52,064 nt of DNA from a virus, in IMG/VR virus record IMGVR_UViG_3300021405_000018, positions 1-52,064 of that record; one strand, written 5' to 3'. This document shows positions 19,645-36,964 of the stretch, piece by piece; within the stretch, counting starts at the first letter, position 1, and each line of letters begins with the position of its first letter. Below the pieces are notes generated by a model. It made no database searches. It was given only the letters and a program-made list of their open reading frames with translations, and had not been told where the DNA came from. Made by a program: the position numbers and the translations under genes.

Positions 19645-20133
19645 ATGCAAACTGACTTTGAATACTGTGTAGCTATTGTCCTGCAAGATGAGGGCGGGCT
19701 CGTCAATAATCCGCACGACCCCGGTGGCACCACCAACTTCGGGATCAGCCAGCGGGCATACCCAAGCCTCAACATTGCTGCTCTCACCAAGGAGCAAGCC
19801 GCACAAATCTACTACGATGATTACTGGACGCCCAACAACTGTGGGGATGTACCACTGCAACTGGGCCTTTACTTCTTCACTGTCTGTGTCATGTCGGGTG
19901 GGATGACGGCGACAAAGCTGCTCCAGCAACTTGTGGGAGTAACGGTGGATGGTGCGTATGGGCCTCACACTTCGAATGCTGTCCATAGCTTCCCTGCTGA
20001 ACGTCACTACGAGTATCTTACGCTGTTCATTCAACATCTCATGACCCTCTCAGACTGGGGACCGTTCGCTAAAGGTTGGCTAAATCGGGTTTTACGGCTG
20101 GCTTCTTTAGCACCACCTTCGCAGCAACCGTAA
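19645..20133 (+). CDS. Endolysin, GH108-type muramidase (162 aa)
   Basis: The N-terminus has the family's E-G-G-x-V-N-x-P-x-D-P-G-G-x-T-N-F-G-I-S motif (E16 catalytic), followed by ISQRAYPSLNIAALTKEQAAQIYYDDYW. Residues 95-150 match the small peptidoglycan-binding half (VDGAYGPHTSNAV...WLNRV). It cleaves the glycan backbone after holin opening. There is no signal peptide. Its last 65 bases overlap the end of the oppositely oriented DUF3987 gene. Confidence 0.85.
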   Translation: MQTDFEYCVAIVLQDEGGLVNNPHDPGGTTNFGISQRAYPSLNIAALTKEQAAQIYYDDYWTPNNCGDVPLQLGLYFFTVCVMSGGMTATKLLQQLVGVTVDGAYGPHTSNAVHSFPAERHYEYLTLFIQHLMTLSDWGPFAKGWLNRVLRLASLAPPSQQP

Positions 20134-21292
20134 CCGTCTCGATCAACCCACTCCTCTTCAGGCCCTTGACTATCTCATCGAAGTCTCGCGGCTTGGGGAG
20201 GCTACCCCGGATGTAAGCGAACGCCTCTCCTATCTCTACACCCTGTACCCCATGCCGCGCAATGAAGTCAACCAGTCTGTCGGAAACGTTGCTTGTCTCC
20301 GTCTTCCCGATACGGTCAAAGATTGACAGAAGCGTGGACTCAAGGTTTGATACGTGGTGCTCAGCCGTTTGAAGGTCCTCTCTGCTGATAACGAGGGAGT
20401 CATCCCTCGCTGCAGAAAGAACCATTGCGAGCTTATGGAGGTGAGAAGCCTTGCGCGAGTAGAAGCCGCCAAGTCTAGAGTCGTCCTTCCCCTTGCCGTG
20501 GAGCGCACAATGTGCGTCGTACCAATCGATGCCCCACTGCACAGCATCAGGAGCAAGAGTGTACTCACCCTCAAGCCGTCCGATGGCATTGAGGTCGTCC
20601 AGCAAATACCGTTTGAGTGTGTTGTGCTCACGCCATTTCTCCTTTGAGATTTGCAGGCCAGGGTACATGATATTCTGGCGCTTCTCGTCCGCGTAGACCC
20701 ACATGATCCGGGAGACGAGGCCCCCCTCGATCATGTATGTGGGTATGTTGTCACTGATCCATGATGGGGTTGTGCAGCCGATGAGGTTGAGGAAGGGGTG
20801 TTCTACCTGCTCACTGCCATTCCCCTTCGTTGCCTTGTCGAGGGGGCCGCAGTCCCATAGGGTGGTGAGCATGTCCATCATCTGGCGGTCGTCAGTCGAT
20901 ATGAGGTTGCCGAGTTCGCCCGATTCGATGGTAAGGGAGTACGTCTCGACCGTGTTTCCGGGGGAATACTCCACCATCCTGACTGCTTTCTCGAAAGAAG
21001 ACACCAGCGCCTGCCATGTGGTGACGTTGGGTCCCATGTGGATATCGTCCACCTTCCGTAGGAGGCGCATTGCAAGACCCGCATTGGTCGATTTGGCGAT
21101 GACCCCCGGTGGTGCAACGAGGACCACGAACATGTTGGGGTACCACTGGAATGTAAGCTGATCAAACCACACCTTCCTCTGGAGTGCGCCTGCAATGGCA
21201 GAAACGCCTGACCAGAATAGAATGTGATCAGGCGCTTCACCTACATGCCCCAGTTCGATAAACCCCTGGAGCCAATTTGATAGTTTCCTCAT
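20069..21292 (-). CDS. DUF3987-type primase/helicase ATPase (407 aa)
   Basis: A longer frame starts with TTG at 21307; I choose ATG 21292, which overlaps the polymerase stop (ATGA) and has GGGGG upstream. The protein has a Walker A loop of the form APPGVIAKST near residue 60, the DUF3987 signature LTFQWYPNMFVVLVAPPG, and later LISTDDRQMMDMLTTLWDC and a C-terminal winged-helix-like part (LVDFIARHGVQGVEIGEAFAYI). The family accompanies phage primases and is thought to be the replicative helicase or primase-helicase. Last gene of the leftward operon. Confidence 0.75.
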   Translation of the reverse strand: MRKLSNWLQGFIELGHVGEAPDHILFWSGVSAIAGALQRKVWFDQLTFQWYPNMFVVLVAPPGVIAKSTNAGLAMRLLRKVDDIHMGPNVTTWQALVSSFEKAVRMVEYSPGNTVETYSLTIESGELGNLISTDDRQMMDMLTTLWDCGPLDKATKGNGSEQVEHPFLNLIGCTTPSWISDNIPTYMIEGGLVSRIMWVYADEKRQNIMYPGLQISKEKWREHNTLKRYLLDDLNAIGRLEGEYTLAPDAVQWGIDWYDAHCALHGKGKDDSRLGGFYSRKASHLHKLAMVLSAARDDSLVISREDLQTAEHHVSNLESTLLSIFDRIGKTETSNVSDRLVDFIARHGVQGVEIGEAFAYIRGSLPKPRDFDEIVKGLKRSGLIETVTVAAKVVLKKPAVKPDLANL

Positions 21293-22023
21293 TGACAATC
21301 CCCCCAACTCTTCTCACTCATTTTCAATCCAACGGGGATGACCAATGGTTCCGGGTAGGGGATGACGATGGTGGCTTCTCGCTTGACGGCTTCTGCGTAG
21401 TCCCCATCGCACTGAATGGGCCACTGCATAGTAAGGCTGTCGTGTACCTGCAACAGAATGTCCACCAGAGGTAGGTTATGGTCGATATTGACATATGCGT
21501 GATTGATGAGGATGCCTACTGTTGATTGGGGAACCCAGGCTACCATACGGTTAAGGATGTTACCCTCTATGCGTTCATAGAACTTCTTTTTGTACCCGAA
21601 AGCATTGGAGACAGTGCCTGTGCGTATGCAACGCTTAACGAACGCATCCTGCCAGCGCTTAATCTCGGGAAACATTTCAAAGTACCAATGCTGGATGCGC
21701 TCCACCTCCTTGACCAGTAGCCCACACTGCCCCGCAATCTCTGGTGCCTTACCCAGGTAGTTCGTAGCGTGGCATAGCTTCTTGAACGCATAGTAGCGCG
21801 GGTCCTCCGTACCATCAGAGCGCTTCTTCTGAATGCTGTTGTCATGGTAGTACTCTCGGGCCACCTGGAGGTATGGTTTTTTCCCCTCCCGGAATAAAGC
21901 CTTCATCCCTTTGCAGTCGCTCTCCCATGTCACTATCCGAAGGTCTGCGCTGTCCAGGTCCAGGTCGGCCATGACCATCCCCTCGTCCGGTATGAACATC
22001 GTACGGATATTGGGCATCGGCAT
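21289..22023 (-). CDS. DNA polymerase family A, polymerase (C-terminal) part of a split gene (244 aa)
   Basis: Contains all three family A polymerase motifs: motif A at 20-29 (DLDLDSADLR), motif B at 76-91 (R-x4-K-K-x6-NYLG) and motif C at 192-195 (QVHD). The ATG at 22023 has its own ribosome site (AGGAGAAGGCTATG), lying inside the HTH gene. The expected upstream part is encoded separately at 22234-23883. The two frames are in the same phase (stop to stop 945 nt), so about 70 codons of inserted sequence separate them. The products must associate to make an active enzyme, or the split is a defect. Confidence 0.85.
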   Translation of the reverse strand: MPMPNIRTMFIPDEGMVMADLDLDSADLRIVTWESDCKGMKALFREGKKPYLQVAREYYHDNSIQKKRSDGTEDPRYYAFKKLCHATNYLGKAPEIAGQCGLLVKEVERIQHWYFEMFPEIKRWQDAFVKRCIRTGTVSNAFGYKKKFYERIEGNILNRMVAWVPQSTVGILINHAYVNIDHNLPLVDILLQVHDSLTMQWPIQCDGDYAEAVKREATIVIPYPEPLVIPVGLKMSEKSWGDCQ

Positions 22024-22237
22024 AGCCTTCTCCTAGCATTAGGTAATCGAGGGTGACATCAAGGACACGGGCCAGTTCAAGGAGTGCCCAGTAGCCTGGG
22101 TGGACACCCATGTCCTCGTAGAGGTGCATCGATGTGGGATGCAGACGGGCTCGCTTGGCTAGGACATGGCGCAGGATTCCACGCTCCTCCCGTAGCCGTC
22201 GCAGGCGGGCACCAAAGGTTTCGAAGTCGTTGTTCAT
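21842..22237 (-). CDS. XRE-type HTH protein inserted within the DNA polymerase gene (131 aa frame)
   Basis: The ATG overlaps the stop of the polymerase N-part (ATGA). Residues 6-68 (FGARLRRLREERGILRHVLAKRA ... YEDMG ... LLELARVLDVTLDYLMLGE) are an XRE helix-turn-helix domain. The remaining 60 residues overlap the polymerase C-part in another frame and look like out-of-frame translation, so the natural protein may be meant to end near residue 72 but has no stop there. A second XRE protein lies at 35289-35519. Its position inside a split polymerase is unusual. Regulator of replication genes, or a mobile insertion, are both possible. Confidence 0.65.
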   Translation of the reverse strand: MNNDFETFGARLRRLREERGILRHVLAKRARLHPTSMHLYEDMGVHPGYWALLELARVLDVTLDYLMLGEGYADAQYPYDVHTGRGDGHGRPGPGQRRPSDSDMGERLQRDEGFIPGGEKTIPPGGPRVLP

Positions 22238-23883
22238 AGCTTTTCCCTTCCATCCGTGATGTTTTGCAGGTTCATTCCCGAGCCGAAGGCGTCTGCGCTA
22301 CTGGAGAACCTGAAAGTGATCGCCCCATTGATATTGTAGCTACAGTGGATACGTCCGTCGTATCCAATTGCAGTGGCCTTAAGTGCGTTCGAAGCGAGGG
22401 TTTCGCAAGACCTAAACGTTGCGATACGATCAGTGATAGGCCTAAGAAATACCTCTCGTTGTCCAATTTTCTCAAGCGCTTCATCGTCACAACAGAGTGC
22501 CTTTGTCTTCCGATTGCGGATAGGCGTTGCGCCCATCTCGTCGTAGAAGAAGGTACACATCTGCTTCGGACTCTTCGGGTTGAGCGGATAGCCGACCATC
22601 TCCGTAATCTCTGCTTCAAGCTGCTTCGCATGGTCCTTTAACTCCTTCAACATTGCTTGGCGTCGGGCGTTGTCAACACGAACCCCACGCGCCATCGTCC
22701 TAAGCACAGGACCAAAGAGAGATTGCTGGAAGTCGTGCGGTCCACGTAGACCCATTCTATCGACCACCGACTGTAGAACGGTATCGCATTCATACGTTCG
22801 AATACAGTCCTCACAGTTGTATGCCCAATACTTGTCTTCATCCTGGTCTGCTCCCTTGTCCCACTCCTTGCCGTCATCCTTCCAGTAGACGTACCACTCG
22901 CAATACATCGAGGCAATGAAGTCGAGGGACTTCTGCATGCCGGGGAAGCACGTGTGCTGGGCTACCATTGTATCTCGAACTTGACGCGGAACCCAGTGCC
23001 AGTGCCGAAGTATATACTGCGCATCGTAGATGAAATTTTGCCCAACGGTGAGTACGTTTGGGTGTGTGAGTAGCCGATACAGCAGCCAAACAATCTCAGA
23101 TTCATCGTCTTCGTTCCAGTATCCCTGCGGTCGTTCGACACAGAGAAATGGCATACAGAGTGCTTCATGATTACTCCACGCTATACCAAGGCACGCAATG
23201 TGCCCGGCTCGGGTTTCAATGTCACATGCCAGTTTCAGGGCTCCTGCTTCAGCCTTGTGATATAGCATGTCAAGACAGTCCCGCACCTGGGACATTGTAG
23301 GCCGTACCTGAAACGCCCATCCGGGTCGATGAGGAACCCGTTGCACACAAGAGGCCGCTCTCCGCAAGTCTTGCACGACAATCGGCTTAAGTGTCCATTG
23401 GCGCAAGACAGCGGCGGGGTGATAGGTAGGTAGCACGATCCCATGTTCCGTCTCCAGGGTACTGCCTCGCCACTTCGCAACGCTATCGAGACCAGTGAGT
23501 GCCCACAGGGCAGTGTTACCGAGGGCGATGATGACGGTCGGACGTACGGCTCTAATTTCAGCAAGTAGTAGAAGGTGCCCCCGAGCGACGTGAGGATGCA
23601 CAGGCCTGCCACGCACCATGACAAAGCCTCCTGCCAGTCCCGCATGCTGCTTCTCCTTCGTGGTGGGCATCCAGAGGTCCATCTTGTTGCCTGGGGGCCG
23701 CTCCCGACAGACGTTCGTGATCCGCACCGAGGCACGGGCGATGCCAACGGCGGAGAGCATCTGGTCCAGGAGTTGGCCGCTGTAGCCCACAAAGGGCTCA
23801 CCAAGGCGCTCCTCGTCCACGCCGGGGGCTTCACCCACTATCATGATGCGGGCGTCCATAGGGCCTATGCTACCGACTGTCAT
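22234..23883 (-). CDS. UDG-like domain fused to DNA polymerase family A exonuclease part (549 aa)
   Basis: Residues 10-165 resemble family 4-type uracil-DNA glycosylases: GEAPG at 17-21, G-x-P-F-V-G-x-S-G-x-L-L, TNVCRERPPGN, and YHPAAVLR at 154-161. The usual iron-sulfur cysteines are mostly missing, so it may be non-catalytic. Residues 215-370 hold a 3'-5' exonuclease: DIE at 221-223, GQNFIYDAQYIL, YNCEDCIRTYE. The fusion of a UDG-like domain to a phage DNA polymerase is known from SPO1. The frame stops at NLQNITDGREKL, exactly where family A enzymes continue to the palm motif A, which is encoded separately at 21289-22023. Confidence 0.85.
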   Translation of the reverse strand: MTVGSIGPMDARIMIVGEAPGVDEERLGEPFVGYSGQLLDQMLSAVGIARASVRITNVCRERPPGNKMDLWMPTTKEKQHAGLAGGFVMVRGRPVHPHVARGHLLLLAEIRAVRPTVIIALGNTALWALTGLDSVAKWRGSTLETEHGIVLPTYHPAAVLRQWTLKPIVVQDLRRAASCVQRVPHRPGWAFQVRPTMSQVRDCLDMLYHKAEAGALKLACDIETRAGHIACLGIAWSNHEALCMPFLCVERPQGYWNEDDESEIVWLLYRLLTHPNVLTVGQNFIYDAQYILRHWHWVPRQVRDTMVAQHTCFPGMQKSLDFIASMYCEWYVYWKDDGKEWDKGADQDEDKYWAYNCEDCIRTYECDTVLQSVVDRMGLRGPHDFQQSLFGPVLRTMARGVRVDNARRQAMLKELKDHAKQLEAEITEMVGYPLNPKSPKQMCTFFYDEMGATPIRNRKTKALCCDDEALEKIGQREVFLRPITDRIATFRSCETLASNALKATAIGYDGRIHCSYNINGAITFRFSSSADAFGSGMNLQNITDGREKL

Positions 23884-34363: not shown

Positions 34364-34448
34364 TGGTCCCCCACCCAGGAATCGAACCTGGCTGGCCAGA
34401 GGCAACGGGGTTACGGCCCGCCCCACATCCATAGTGGTCTAATGAGGG
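34364..34448 (-). tRNA. tRNA-Tyr (anticodon GTA) with encoded CCA
   Basis: On the minus strand: acceptor CCCTCAT/GTGGGGG (two wobbles), discriminator A then CCA, D-arm CCAC-TATGGAT-GTGG, anticodon arm GCGGG-CCGTAAC-CCCGT (GTA), class II variable arm GCC-TCT-GGC, T-arm CCAGG-TTCGATT-CCTGG; 85 nt with CCA. The GTA anticodon and long variable arm fit tRNA-Tyr. Odd points: C instead of T before the anticodon, and 4 nt rather than 2 between acceptor and D-stem. The D-arm overlaps one arm of a 17-bp inverted repeat. Confidence 0.7.
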
Positions 34449-35288: not shown

Positions 35289-35519
35289 TTAGTCCTCCAG
35301 ACCGACAAGGTAATCAATACTGCATTCAAGTACTATAGCCATCTTGATGATGGATCGCAAGCTGGGGTAAACCCCACGATTCTCGTAGGCCGTGATCTGG
35401 CATTGATGAAGGAAGCATTCGGCTGCAAACCTCTCAATGCCGTAACCACGGCGCATACGCTCGGCCTTGAGGCGGGTCCCAAGAGCCCCAAAGGCCTCCT
35501 TACGTTTATACGGCTTCAC
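35289..35519 (-). CDS. XRE-type HTH regulator (76 aa)
   Basis: GTG start fused with the Ro60 stop. AFGALGTRLKAERMRRGYGI, RFAAECFLHQCQITAYENRG, SLRSIIKMAIVLECSIDYLV matches the five-helix XRE fold, length typical of a stand-alone domain. Co-transcribed with Ro60 and the ncRNA cluster, so it may regulate that unit. Confidence 0.7.
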   Translation of the reverse strand: MKPYKRKEAFGALGTRLKAERMRRGYGIERFAAECFLHQCQITAYENRGVYPSLRSIIKMAIVLECSIDYLVGLED

Positions 35520-36964
35520 GCCTGGGCCTCCACAGCCCGGATGAAGTCAACTGAGGCTTCGCTGAAGCCATCAATATGCGTCCACTTTCCGTAACCAATC
35601 CCGTTCTTTGCGCTTGCCACGTTGATGAGGTATGCCCGACCACATCCAGGTTCCGCCAGCTTCGGGGATTGCGCATGATCAACAGCACAATCCTGCTCGT
35701 CCGTGACAACGACGATGCGGTCATACATTTCACGCTCGTTGATGAAGTCGAGCATGGGTTTGAGGAAGATGCCTCCTCCACCAAGCACTCTGTAGGACTC
35801 ATGGAATGCTGCAACGAGAGCCATTCCGTGCCTAGCTGGTACAGATTTCGTGGCGTGTGTTCGTGTGCGGTCGCTTCCTGCTGTTGCATAGACTACTGCC
35901 TCCTCACATTGTTCGCGCAGGATTGCGCACAGGGCGGCACCAGCGTCGATACGATTCAGGGTGGACTTGCTCGACAGCATGCTGCCCATCGAGCCCGACA
36001 CGTCGAGGACGATCAGCGTCCTCCCTTCAAGTTTCGGACCGTCCTGGAGTCCTTGCACCATCGCACCATCGAGCACAGCTTCGAACTGAGGGGCCTCGCG
36101 GGCTGCGCTGATGAAACGGAACGGGAGGACCTTGCTTGCGCCTTTACGGGCCTGGATGGCTTGTTCAATGAGGCCACGGTCCACCCCCAGTTCAGTCATC
36201 TTGCGCAGGTTCCGAAGGAGGGCCATATAGGGCAGCTTCCCCTCACGCAACATCACTTCGAATACATCTTTACTGCCACCTTCATCCCCCTTAGCTGCGC
36301 TAAGGCCCACTTCCCATGTCTCGGGCGTCTTGAGGGTGCGGTCAACGATGCGCCGATACAACTGTTCTTCAGGTGTAGTGCCCGCAGTGCTGCTCAACCG
36401 GTTACCAATGCCTTGCGCACGTTGATGCTTCGTGCCGTAGGCACCACTGACCGACTTCGGCTTCCCATGCACCATGAACAGAACGTCGCGCAGCTTGATA
36501 GGCGAGTCGGCCTTCTCCCATTTCGAGAACTGATACTCATCGAACTTGCGGAAGGCACGGGCAAGGCCGACCTTAACCTGCTTCGCAAGGGGACACTTAC
36601 CGTCCTTCCAGTAGATGGCCATGAATTCGGCTATCTCGTCGGGCCGTTGGATCACCCTAGCGAGGGTATCTCCAACCAGTTTGCCTCTCGCACATCGAGC
36701 AAGCGCCCGCACGAGCAGCAACGGTACGTGCCGAAGGTGTTGCTGTTCCCTTGCCTCAATGGCGAGTTGTGCAACAGTTGCAGGGTCGCATGCTGGCACC
36801 AGCTCTGCGATCCGACTAGCGATTGAGCCGCCTGATTCATACGCTTCGCCCTCCCAAAGCATGCACGACAGCACCGTGCGGCGTAGTTCTTCAATCGGGG
36901 TAAGGTGGAAGGCCTCTGCGCCGCCATGGGTACGAGGGCCTTCTGGATGGTTGGTACTGGACAT
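35516..36964 (-). CDS. rsr: Ro60/Rsr orthologue (TROVE + vWA) (482 aa)
   Basis: The first 300 residues form the HEAT-like TROVE ring (SCMLWEGEAYESGGSIASRI, LAIEAREQQHLRHVPLLLVR, PYMALLRNLRKMTELGVDRG, KVLPFRFISAAREAPQFEAV). Residues 313-482 are a vWA domain with DVSGS at 321-325 and a later D422. The TD usually seen after GG is replaced by GGGGIF at 395-400, so the metal site may be altered. Ro60 binds Y RNAs and misfolded RNAs and in bacteria works with PNPase. Directly upstream lies a 1-kb RNA cluster. Ribosome site AGGAG at about 36971-36975. Confidence 0.85.
   Translation of the reverse strand: MSSTNHPEGPRTHGGAEAFHLTPIEELRRTVLSCMLWEGEAYESGGSIASRIAELVPACDPATVAQLAIEAREQQHLRHVPLLLVRALARCARGKLVGDTLARVIQRPDEIAEFMAIYWKDGKCPLAKQVKVGLARAFRKFDEYQFSKWEKADSPIKLRDVLFMVHGKPKSVSGAYGTKHQRAQGIGNRLSSTAGTTPEEQLYRRIVDRTLKTPETWEVGLSAAKGDEGGSKDVFEVMLREGKLPYMALLRNLRKMTELGVDRGLIEQAIQARKGASKVLPFRFISAAREAPQFEAVLDGAMVQGLQDGPKLEGRTLIVLDVSGSMGSMLSSKSTLNRIDAGAALCAILREQCEEAVVYATAGSDRTRTHATKSVPARHGMALVAAFHESYRVLGGGGIFLKPMLDFINEREMYDRIVVVTDEQDCAVDHAQSPKLAEPGCGRAYLINVASAKNGIGYGKWTHIDGFSEASVDFIRAVEAQA

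What the first reader, a model, noticed from the sequence alone, without database searches (positions are those of the whole stretch)
21289..23883. Family A DNA polymerase split by an HTH gene
UDG-like plus exonuclease part (22234-23883) stops after NLQNITDGREKL. The palm motifs A-B-C are in a separate gene (21289-22023) with its own AGGAG. Between them is an XRE HTH gene starting at an ATGA overlap. The two polymerase parts are in the same phase, and an imperfect 14-nt repeat (AGGGAAAAGCTATG / AGGAGAAGGCTATG) flanks the insert. Active split enzyme, recent insertion, or spliced/bypassed element are all possible.
Basis: partly seen in the sequence, partly recalled or inferred. Interest (0 to 1): 0.85.

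Follow-up and report, generated by a model that had tools for sequence, protein, structure and literature searches.

The report
Naturally split phage DNA polymerase
This virus makes its DNA-copying enzyme as two separate proteins, cut at one loop beside the active site, and dozens of related viruses show that the cut is old and has arisen more than once, while the small gene lying in the gap is a changeable passenger.

Summary
In detail: on the minus strand a UDG-exonuclease-thumb-palm(N) gene (22234-23883), an XRE helix-turn-helix gene (21842-22237, ATGA overlap) and a palm(C)-fingers gene (21289-22023) together hold a complete family A polymerase. It is not a sequencing error, a fresh insertion or an intron. 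In 141 non-redundant relatives the polymerase is intact in 115 and cut at this same loop in 26. The window belongs to an all-split clade of 16; the data reject a single split clade (AU p = 6e-5), so fission or re-fusion recurred. The gap holds nothing (11 cases) or 1-5 unrelated ORFs: XRE or winged HTH, HNH-AP2 homing endonuclease, MazG-like pyrophosphatase and others. Both halves are under strong purifying selection and are predicted to fold together as a Klenow-like polymerase (pTM 0.83), with the break in a disordered loop. The 14-nt repeat is chance-level and 214 nt apart, so deleting between the copies would not restore the frame. Best reading: a two-subunit family A polymerase from translationally coupled genes, with a cargo slot probably opened or reused by homing endonucleases. 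Precedents: T4-related split gp43 (PolB) and OM43 phage MEP401 (PolA, adjacent loop). A new variant of a known kind; activity untested.

The parts
22234..23883 (-). N-half of family A DNA polymerase: UDG-like domain + 3'-5' exonuclease + thumb + first part of palm, ending NLQNITDGREKL*
   Evidence: Pfam UDG, DNA_pol_A_exo1, DNA_pol_A 5-132; dN/dS 0.06-0.15 among relatives
21289..22023 (-). C-half of family A DNA polymerase: motif A (DLDLDSADLR), fingers, motif C (QVHDSL)
   Evidence: Pfam DNA_pol_A 140-357; matches Klenow/Taq from just before motif A; dN/dS 0.06-0.10 where computable
21842..22237 (-). XRE-type HTH ORF in the slot between the halves; residues 8-76 are the HTH fold, residues from about 77 on overlap the palm gene out of frame and are predicted disordered
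   Evidence: HTH_31 2.4e-9; structure model; 60% identical homologue in the same slot in L008, dN/dS 0.27
22234..22237 (-). ATGA overlap: N-half stop TGA with HTH start ATG (translational coupling)
   Evidence: Sequence; ATGA or TAATG at the same place in L007-L010
22021..22034 (-). Palm ribosome-binding site and start, AGGAGAAGGCTATG
   Evidence: Sequence; similarity to 22235-22248 is chance level
20069..21307 (-). Downstream DUF3987 / primase-helicase-like gene overlapping the palm 3' end; same neighbour in the intact relative Mel-JY34
   Evidence: Pfam DUF3987 4.2e-18, phrog_14296 DNA primase 9.1e-66; synteny

Best explanation
A two-subunit family A DNA polymerase. The ancestral one-gene UDG-exo-pol was split at a variable surface loop of the palm (between NLQNIP and the strand before motif A; about residues 681-688 of E. 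coli Pol I). The two polypeptides are made from adjacent, translationally coupled genes and reassemble without covalent joining into one active polymerase (inferred). The site between them is a slot in which small genes come and go; the window's XRE HTH gene is one such cargo, likely a regulator or passenger and not part of the catalytic core. Homing endonucleases are the most likely agents that opened or reused the slot (inferred from HNH-AP2 genes there in two relatives).
For: Complementary halves. Closest named relative MW202489 (52-53% identical) and Microcystis phage Mel-JY34 are intact, with a loop of 14 and 20 residues at the exact site. Four IMG/VR relatives at 77-82% identity are split at the same site with different cargo and different stop codons, TGA or TAA. 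26 of 141 non-redundant polymerases are split there, 11 with no insert. The window's clade of 16 is all split (SH-aLRT 92-96), and one single split clade is rejected, p 6e-5. Strong purifying selection on both halves. Joint model mean pLDDT 85.7, pTM 0.83, only the nonsense insert (547-618) disordered; best PDB hits Klenow and Bst. Cargo ORFs start on the N-half stop (ATGA/TAATG), and in several cases end on or over the palm start. HNH-AP2 endonucleases in the slot of L008 and L036, 46% identical. Precedent: split PolB halves of phage 25 co-purify and are active (PMC2988022).
Against: No expression, co-purification or activity data exist. The joint model joins the halves by a read-through linker and uses an alignment of mostly intact relatives, so it shows compatibility, not assembly. 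That homing endonucleases made the first cut is inferred; most slots hold none today. A second complete polymerase in the host or elsewhere in the virus was not excluded (the contig is of unknown completeness).
Confidence: 0.88

Rival explanations
1. The HTH segment is an intron, intein or bypassed element and the mature product is one polypeptide.
For: Both halves are in the same phase in the window and its four closest relatives (L008 ignoring its HNH gene); phage polymerase genes do carry introns and inteins, e.g. an intein-like insert in motif B of relative L085.
Against: No intron family in Rfam for the window or ten relatives; RNA of the junction is not unusually structured (z -0.77); phase is mixed across splits with inserts (6:5:4 for phases 0,1,2); eleven splits have no insert and two have 4-5 genes in the slot.
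Confidence: 0.03
2. HTH translation feeds the palm by programmed frameshifting, giving an HTH-palm fusion, or the overlapping HTH tail is a functional dual-coded region.
For: In window, L007, L009 and L010 the cargo ORF stays open 52-57 codons past the palm start in the same alternative frame; four-fold synonymous change is lower there (0.44 against 0.70; intact controls 0.69 against 0.70; column permutation p 0.0012).
Against: Equal or deeper troughs exist elsewhere (exonuclease codons 152-200, 0.25); the trough persists when L008, whose HTH no longer overlaps the palm, is included; L090 has the open frame although its HTH stops at the palm start; no slippery site noticed at the junction; tail predicted disordered; the palm has its own ribosome-binding site.
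Confidence: 0.06
3. The polymerase is inactivated (pseudogene) and the virus uses another polymerase.
For: The break lies inside the palm domain; activity is untested.
Against: dN/dS about 0.1 on both halves at near-saturated synonymous change, conserved catalytic motifs, an old clade of 16 all split.
Confidence: 0.03

Closest known systems
Split gp43 (PolB) of T4-related Aeromonas phages 25 and 44RR (PMC2988022, citing Petrov et al. 2010)
   Same: Replicative polymerase in two adjacent genes, with a homing endonuclease or only an untranslated spacer between; halves co-purify and are active
   Different: Family B, different break position, no HTH cargo reported, not a UDG fusion
OM43 phages MEP401/MEP402 split PolA (PMC10580990; OP830906)
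   Same: Family A polymerase in two ORFs with one small unknown ORF between, exonuclease plus N-part and C-part
   Different: Break lies about 10 residues further on (FLSRYGE* / MILNADAKALE), no UDG domain, unrelated 77-aa middle ORF; authors suggested a possible intron
Vibrio phage vB_VspS_VS-ABTNL-3 PVS_27-29
   Same: Split at exactly the same loop of a homologous UDG-exo-pol (NLQNLPKGDG*), with a cargo ORF between
   Different: About 31% identity, unrelated 184-aa cargo; annotated as separate genes, no publication found here that discusses the split
Split nrdA of phage Aeh1 (mobE insertion) (PMC2988022)
   Same: Essential enzyme cut by a homing endonuclease; product still fully functional; in T4, mobE starts on the nrdA stop (UAAUGA), like the TAATG overlaps here
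   Different: Ribonucleotide reductase, not polymerase

Membership tests
Family A DNA polymerase | DNA_pol_A domain with motifs A, B, C | tested here: met
   Pfam in two complementary pieces; Klenow/Taq alignments and fold
Family A DNA polymerase | Polymerase activity | not testable with these tools
   Needs protein
Naturally split polymerase | Two separate genes hold complementary parts, conserved across relatives | tested here: met
   16-member all-split clade
Naturally split polymerase | Parts assemble into an active enzyme | not testable with these tools
   Joint model only
Group I/II intron | Catalytic RNA fold | tested here: not met
   No Rfam match; insert 214 nt; no RNA structure signal
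Intein | In-frame splicing domain | tested here: not met
   Stop codons in frame; only HTH domain found
Homing endonuclease insertion | Endonuclease gene in the gap | tested here: not met
   Window cargo is XRE HTH only; HNH-AP2 present in relatives L008 and L036
XRE/Cro-CI HTH regulator | XRE HTH fold | tested here: met
   HTH_31 2.4e-9; helical HTH model residues 8-76

The most novel reading that the evidence does not exclude
The slot cargo matters to the enzyme: small DNA-binding proteins (XRE, winged HTH, AP2-like) made between the halves act as swappable third subunits or assembly-coupled regulators of the split polymerase, possibly with HTH-palm fusion by frameshifting.
Probability: 0.08. 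Interest if true: 0.8.

Novelty: new variant of a known kind. Interest (0 to 1): 0.55.

Why it matters
It shows that a family A polymerase palm can be cut next to motif A repeatedly and stay conserved over long evolution, giving a natural set of split polymerases (with matched intact relatives and insert-free versions) to study assembly, and a clear case of gene fission fixed in an essential enzyme with a turnover site for cargo genes. Split family A polymerases would also be useful switchable reagents.

Tried and rejected
Target-site duplication: repeat copies are 214 nt apart (not a multiple of 3) and at chance similarity; not conserved in relatives. Intron/RNA structure: none. Same phase as evidence for splicing or bypass: phases are mixed outside the closest clade. 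Dual coding of the HTH tail: suggestive synonymous reduction, not decisive. Stop-codon recoding: relatives end the N-half with TGA or TAA, so no single recoding explains it. HTH homologues elsewhere: none in named phages or by pattern in IMG/VR. Host: only two MAG contigs of about 50 kb (Dokdonella- and Nitrososphaera-labelled) carry relatives, probably binned viruses, so host unknown. Literature searches found no report of this split site; the library is open-access only.

Full report
OBSERVATION. The window is one IMG/VR virus contig. On the minus strand lie, in order of transcription, a 549-aa ORF (22234-23883), a 131-aa ORF (21842-22237) and a 244-aa ORF (21289-22023). Pfam finds UDG, 3'-5' exonuclease and DNA_pol_A positions 5-132 in the first, an XRE-type HTH in the second, and DNA_pol_A positions 140-357 in the third. 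The halves are therefore complementary. The ATGA overlap, the AGGAG and the equal phase are real. The 14-nt repeat (11/14) is not more than chance: 2 such pairs observed in the 311-nt region, 2.05 expected; its copies are 214 nt apart, so a precise deletion between them would leave a frameshift. They are simply the ribosome-binding-site-plus-ATG regions of the HTH and palm genes.

INTACT RELATIVES. The closest named relatives, MW202489 (52-53%) and Microcystis phage Mel-JY34 (42% and 34%), have a single gene. Their sequence at the site is NLQNIP-(variable loop)-LPNIR or -LPDVR; the window has NLQNITDGREKL* and MPMPNIR. So the cut falls in a variable loop and essentially no conserved residue is lost. 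In E. coli Pol I terms this is about residues 681-688, some 16 residues before the motif A aspartate; the C-half begins matching Taq at about residue 594.

SPLIT RELATIVES. Four IMG/VR contigs with 77-82% identical N-halves (L007-L010) are all split at the same place. Each has a different ORF in the gap: an XRE HTH 60% identical to the window's plus an HNH endonuclease (L008), XRE plus AP2-like (L007), a diverged XRE (L010), a possible winged HTH (L009; weak Pfam support only). N-half stop codons are TGA or TAA, so neither a sequencing error nor one recoded codon can explain the split.

TALLY. Wider scans gave 141 polymerases below 97% identity with both halves: 115 intact, 15 split with an insert, 11 split without. 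The insert-free ones have stop and start overlapping or a few bases apart (e.g. GGGGACGATTAATGCCACTA in L051). Insert contents elsewhere: MazG-like pyrophosphatase plus XRE/AP2-like (L017) or plus a possible winged HTH (L022); HNH-AP2 endonuclease plus AP2-like (L036); XRE HTH with its own stop at the palm start (L090); small unknown ORFs (L062, L162, Vibrio phage VS-ABTNL-3); five ORFs including a DnaQ-like one (L307); four ORFs including a methyltransferase-like one (L315). The AP2, DnaQ and methyltransferase labels are by eye from sequence motifs.

TREE. On the tree the window sits in a clade of 16, all split (SH-aLRT 92-96 in the different trees); the label needs 6 changes over 141 rows, and a tree with 21 split rows held as one clade is rejected, p 6e-5. 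Supports are from quick searches, and gain cannot be told from re-fusion by counting, but fission is old in the window's clade and happened (or reversed) several times overall.

FUNCTION OF THE HALVES. dN/dS is 0.06-0.15 for the N-half and 0.06-0.10 for the C-half where synonymous change is not saturated. Exonuclease motifs DIET, N..YD, YN..D and polymerase motifs A and C are conserved. A joint AlphaFold2 model made by reading through the gap has mean pLDDT 85.7 and pTM 0.83, with only residues 547-618 (break plus nonsense insert) below 50; Foldseek's best hits are Klenow and Bst large fragments. This shows that the halves are compatible with one polymerase fold, not that they assemble. Shown: conserved complementary genes. 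Inferred: non-covalent assembly and activity, by analogy with split gp43, whose halves co-purify and polymerise, and split NrdA, which is active (PMC2988022).

THE HTH. Residues 8-76 model as an XRE-type helical domain; the remaining tail, which overlaps the palm gene in another frame, is disordered. Between window and L008 its dN/dS is 0.27, so it is a real gene. The cargo ORFs of window, L007, L009 and L010 all run about 52-57 codons into the palm in the same frame, and synonymous change in that part of the palm is lower than in the rest (0.44 vs 0.70; intact relatives 0.69 vs 0.70). Because equally deep troughs occur in the exonuclease part without any known overlap, because adding L008 (no present overlap) does not weaken it, and because L090 has the open frame without using it, I take this only as a lead. 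The likeliest role is a small autoregulator or passenger gene expressed by translational coupling; a role as a third subunit is not excluded.

ORIGIN OF THE SLOT. HNH-AP2 endonucleases lie in the slot of L008 and L036 (46% identical). In L008 the HNH gene begins with the palm's own MPMPNI sequence and the palm start is repeated after it, the look of an insertion into the palm start; an endonuclease VII-like gene follows the palm. An intein-like insert sits in motif B of L085. Homing elements thus do target this gene, and by analogy with T4-related phages they are the best candidates for having opened or reused the slot.

COMPARISON. T4-related split PolB is the nearest mechanistic parallel; OM43 phage MEP401 is the nearest family A case, cut about 10 residues further on with an unrelated small ORF. 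I found no publication on this site, within an open-access library. Verdict: real, old, recurrent; a new variant of a known kind; activity remains to be shown.

Noticed in passing
window 21289-22023 (palm); columns H705/K701/Y709 of alignments A3/A5: The position equivalent to E. coli Pol I F762 (Taq F667) is a nearly invariant histidine in this whole UDG-pol family, while the K758 and Y766 equivalents are kept; position 762 is usually F, Y or L in phage PolA (from memory).
   Followed up: partly
L004 3971-7375 (Caulobacter phage Kuura): A related UDG-exo-pol is cut at a different place, inside the exonuclease domain before Exo III, with two small ORFs in the gap.
   Followed up: partly
L085 5597-6727: Intein-like in-frame insertion in polymerase motif B (FAHG|C...) of an intact-loop relative.
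   Followed up: no
L008 6855-7331 and 8031-8447: HNH-AP2 endonuclease whose ORF starts with the palm's MPMPNI, and an endonuclease VII-like HNH gene between palm and DUF3987 gene.
   Followed up: partly
window 35516-36964 (-) and 34364-34448 (-): Phage-encoded TROVE/Ro60-like RNA-binding protein with a tRNA-Tyr-like gene about 1 kb downstream on the same strand; a Y-RNA/YrlA-like partner could be looked for.
   Followed up: no
window exonuclease gene, codons about 152-200: Unexplained deep trough of synonymous change (0.25) among the five closest viruses.
   Followed up: no
L307 5231-6951 and L315 5218-6208: Split-polymerase slots that hold four to five accessory ORFs, including DnaQ-like and methyltransferase-like ones.
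   Followed up: partly
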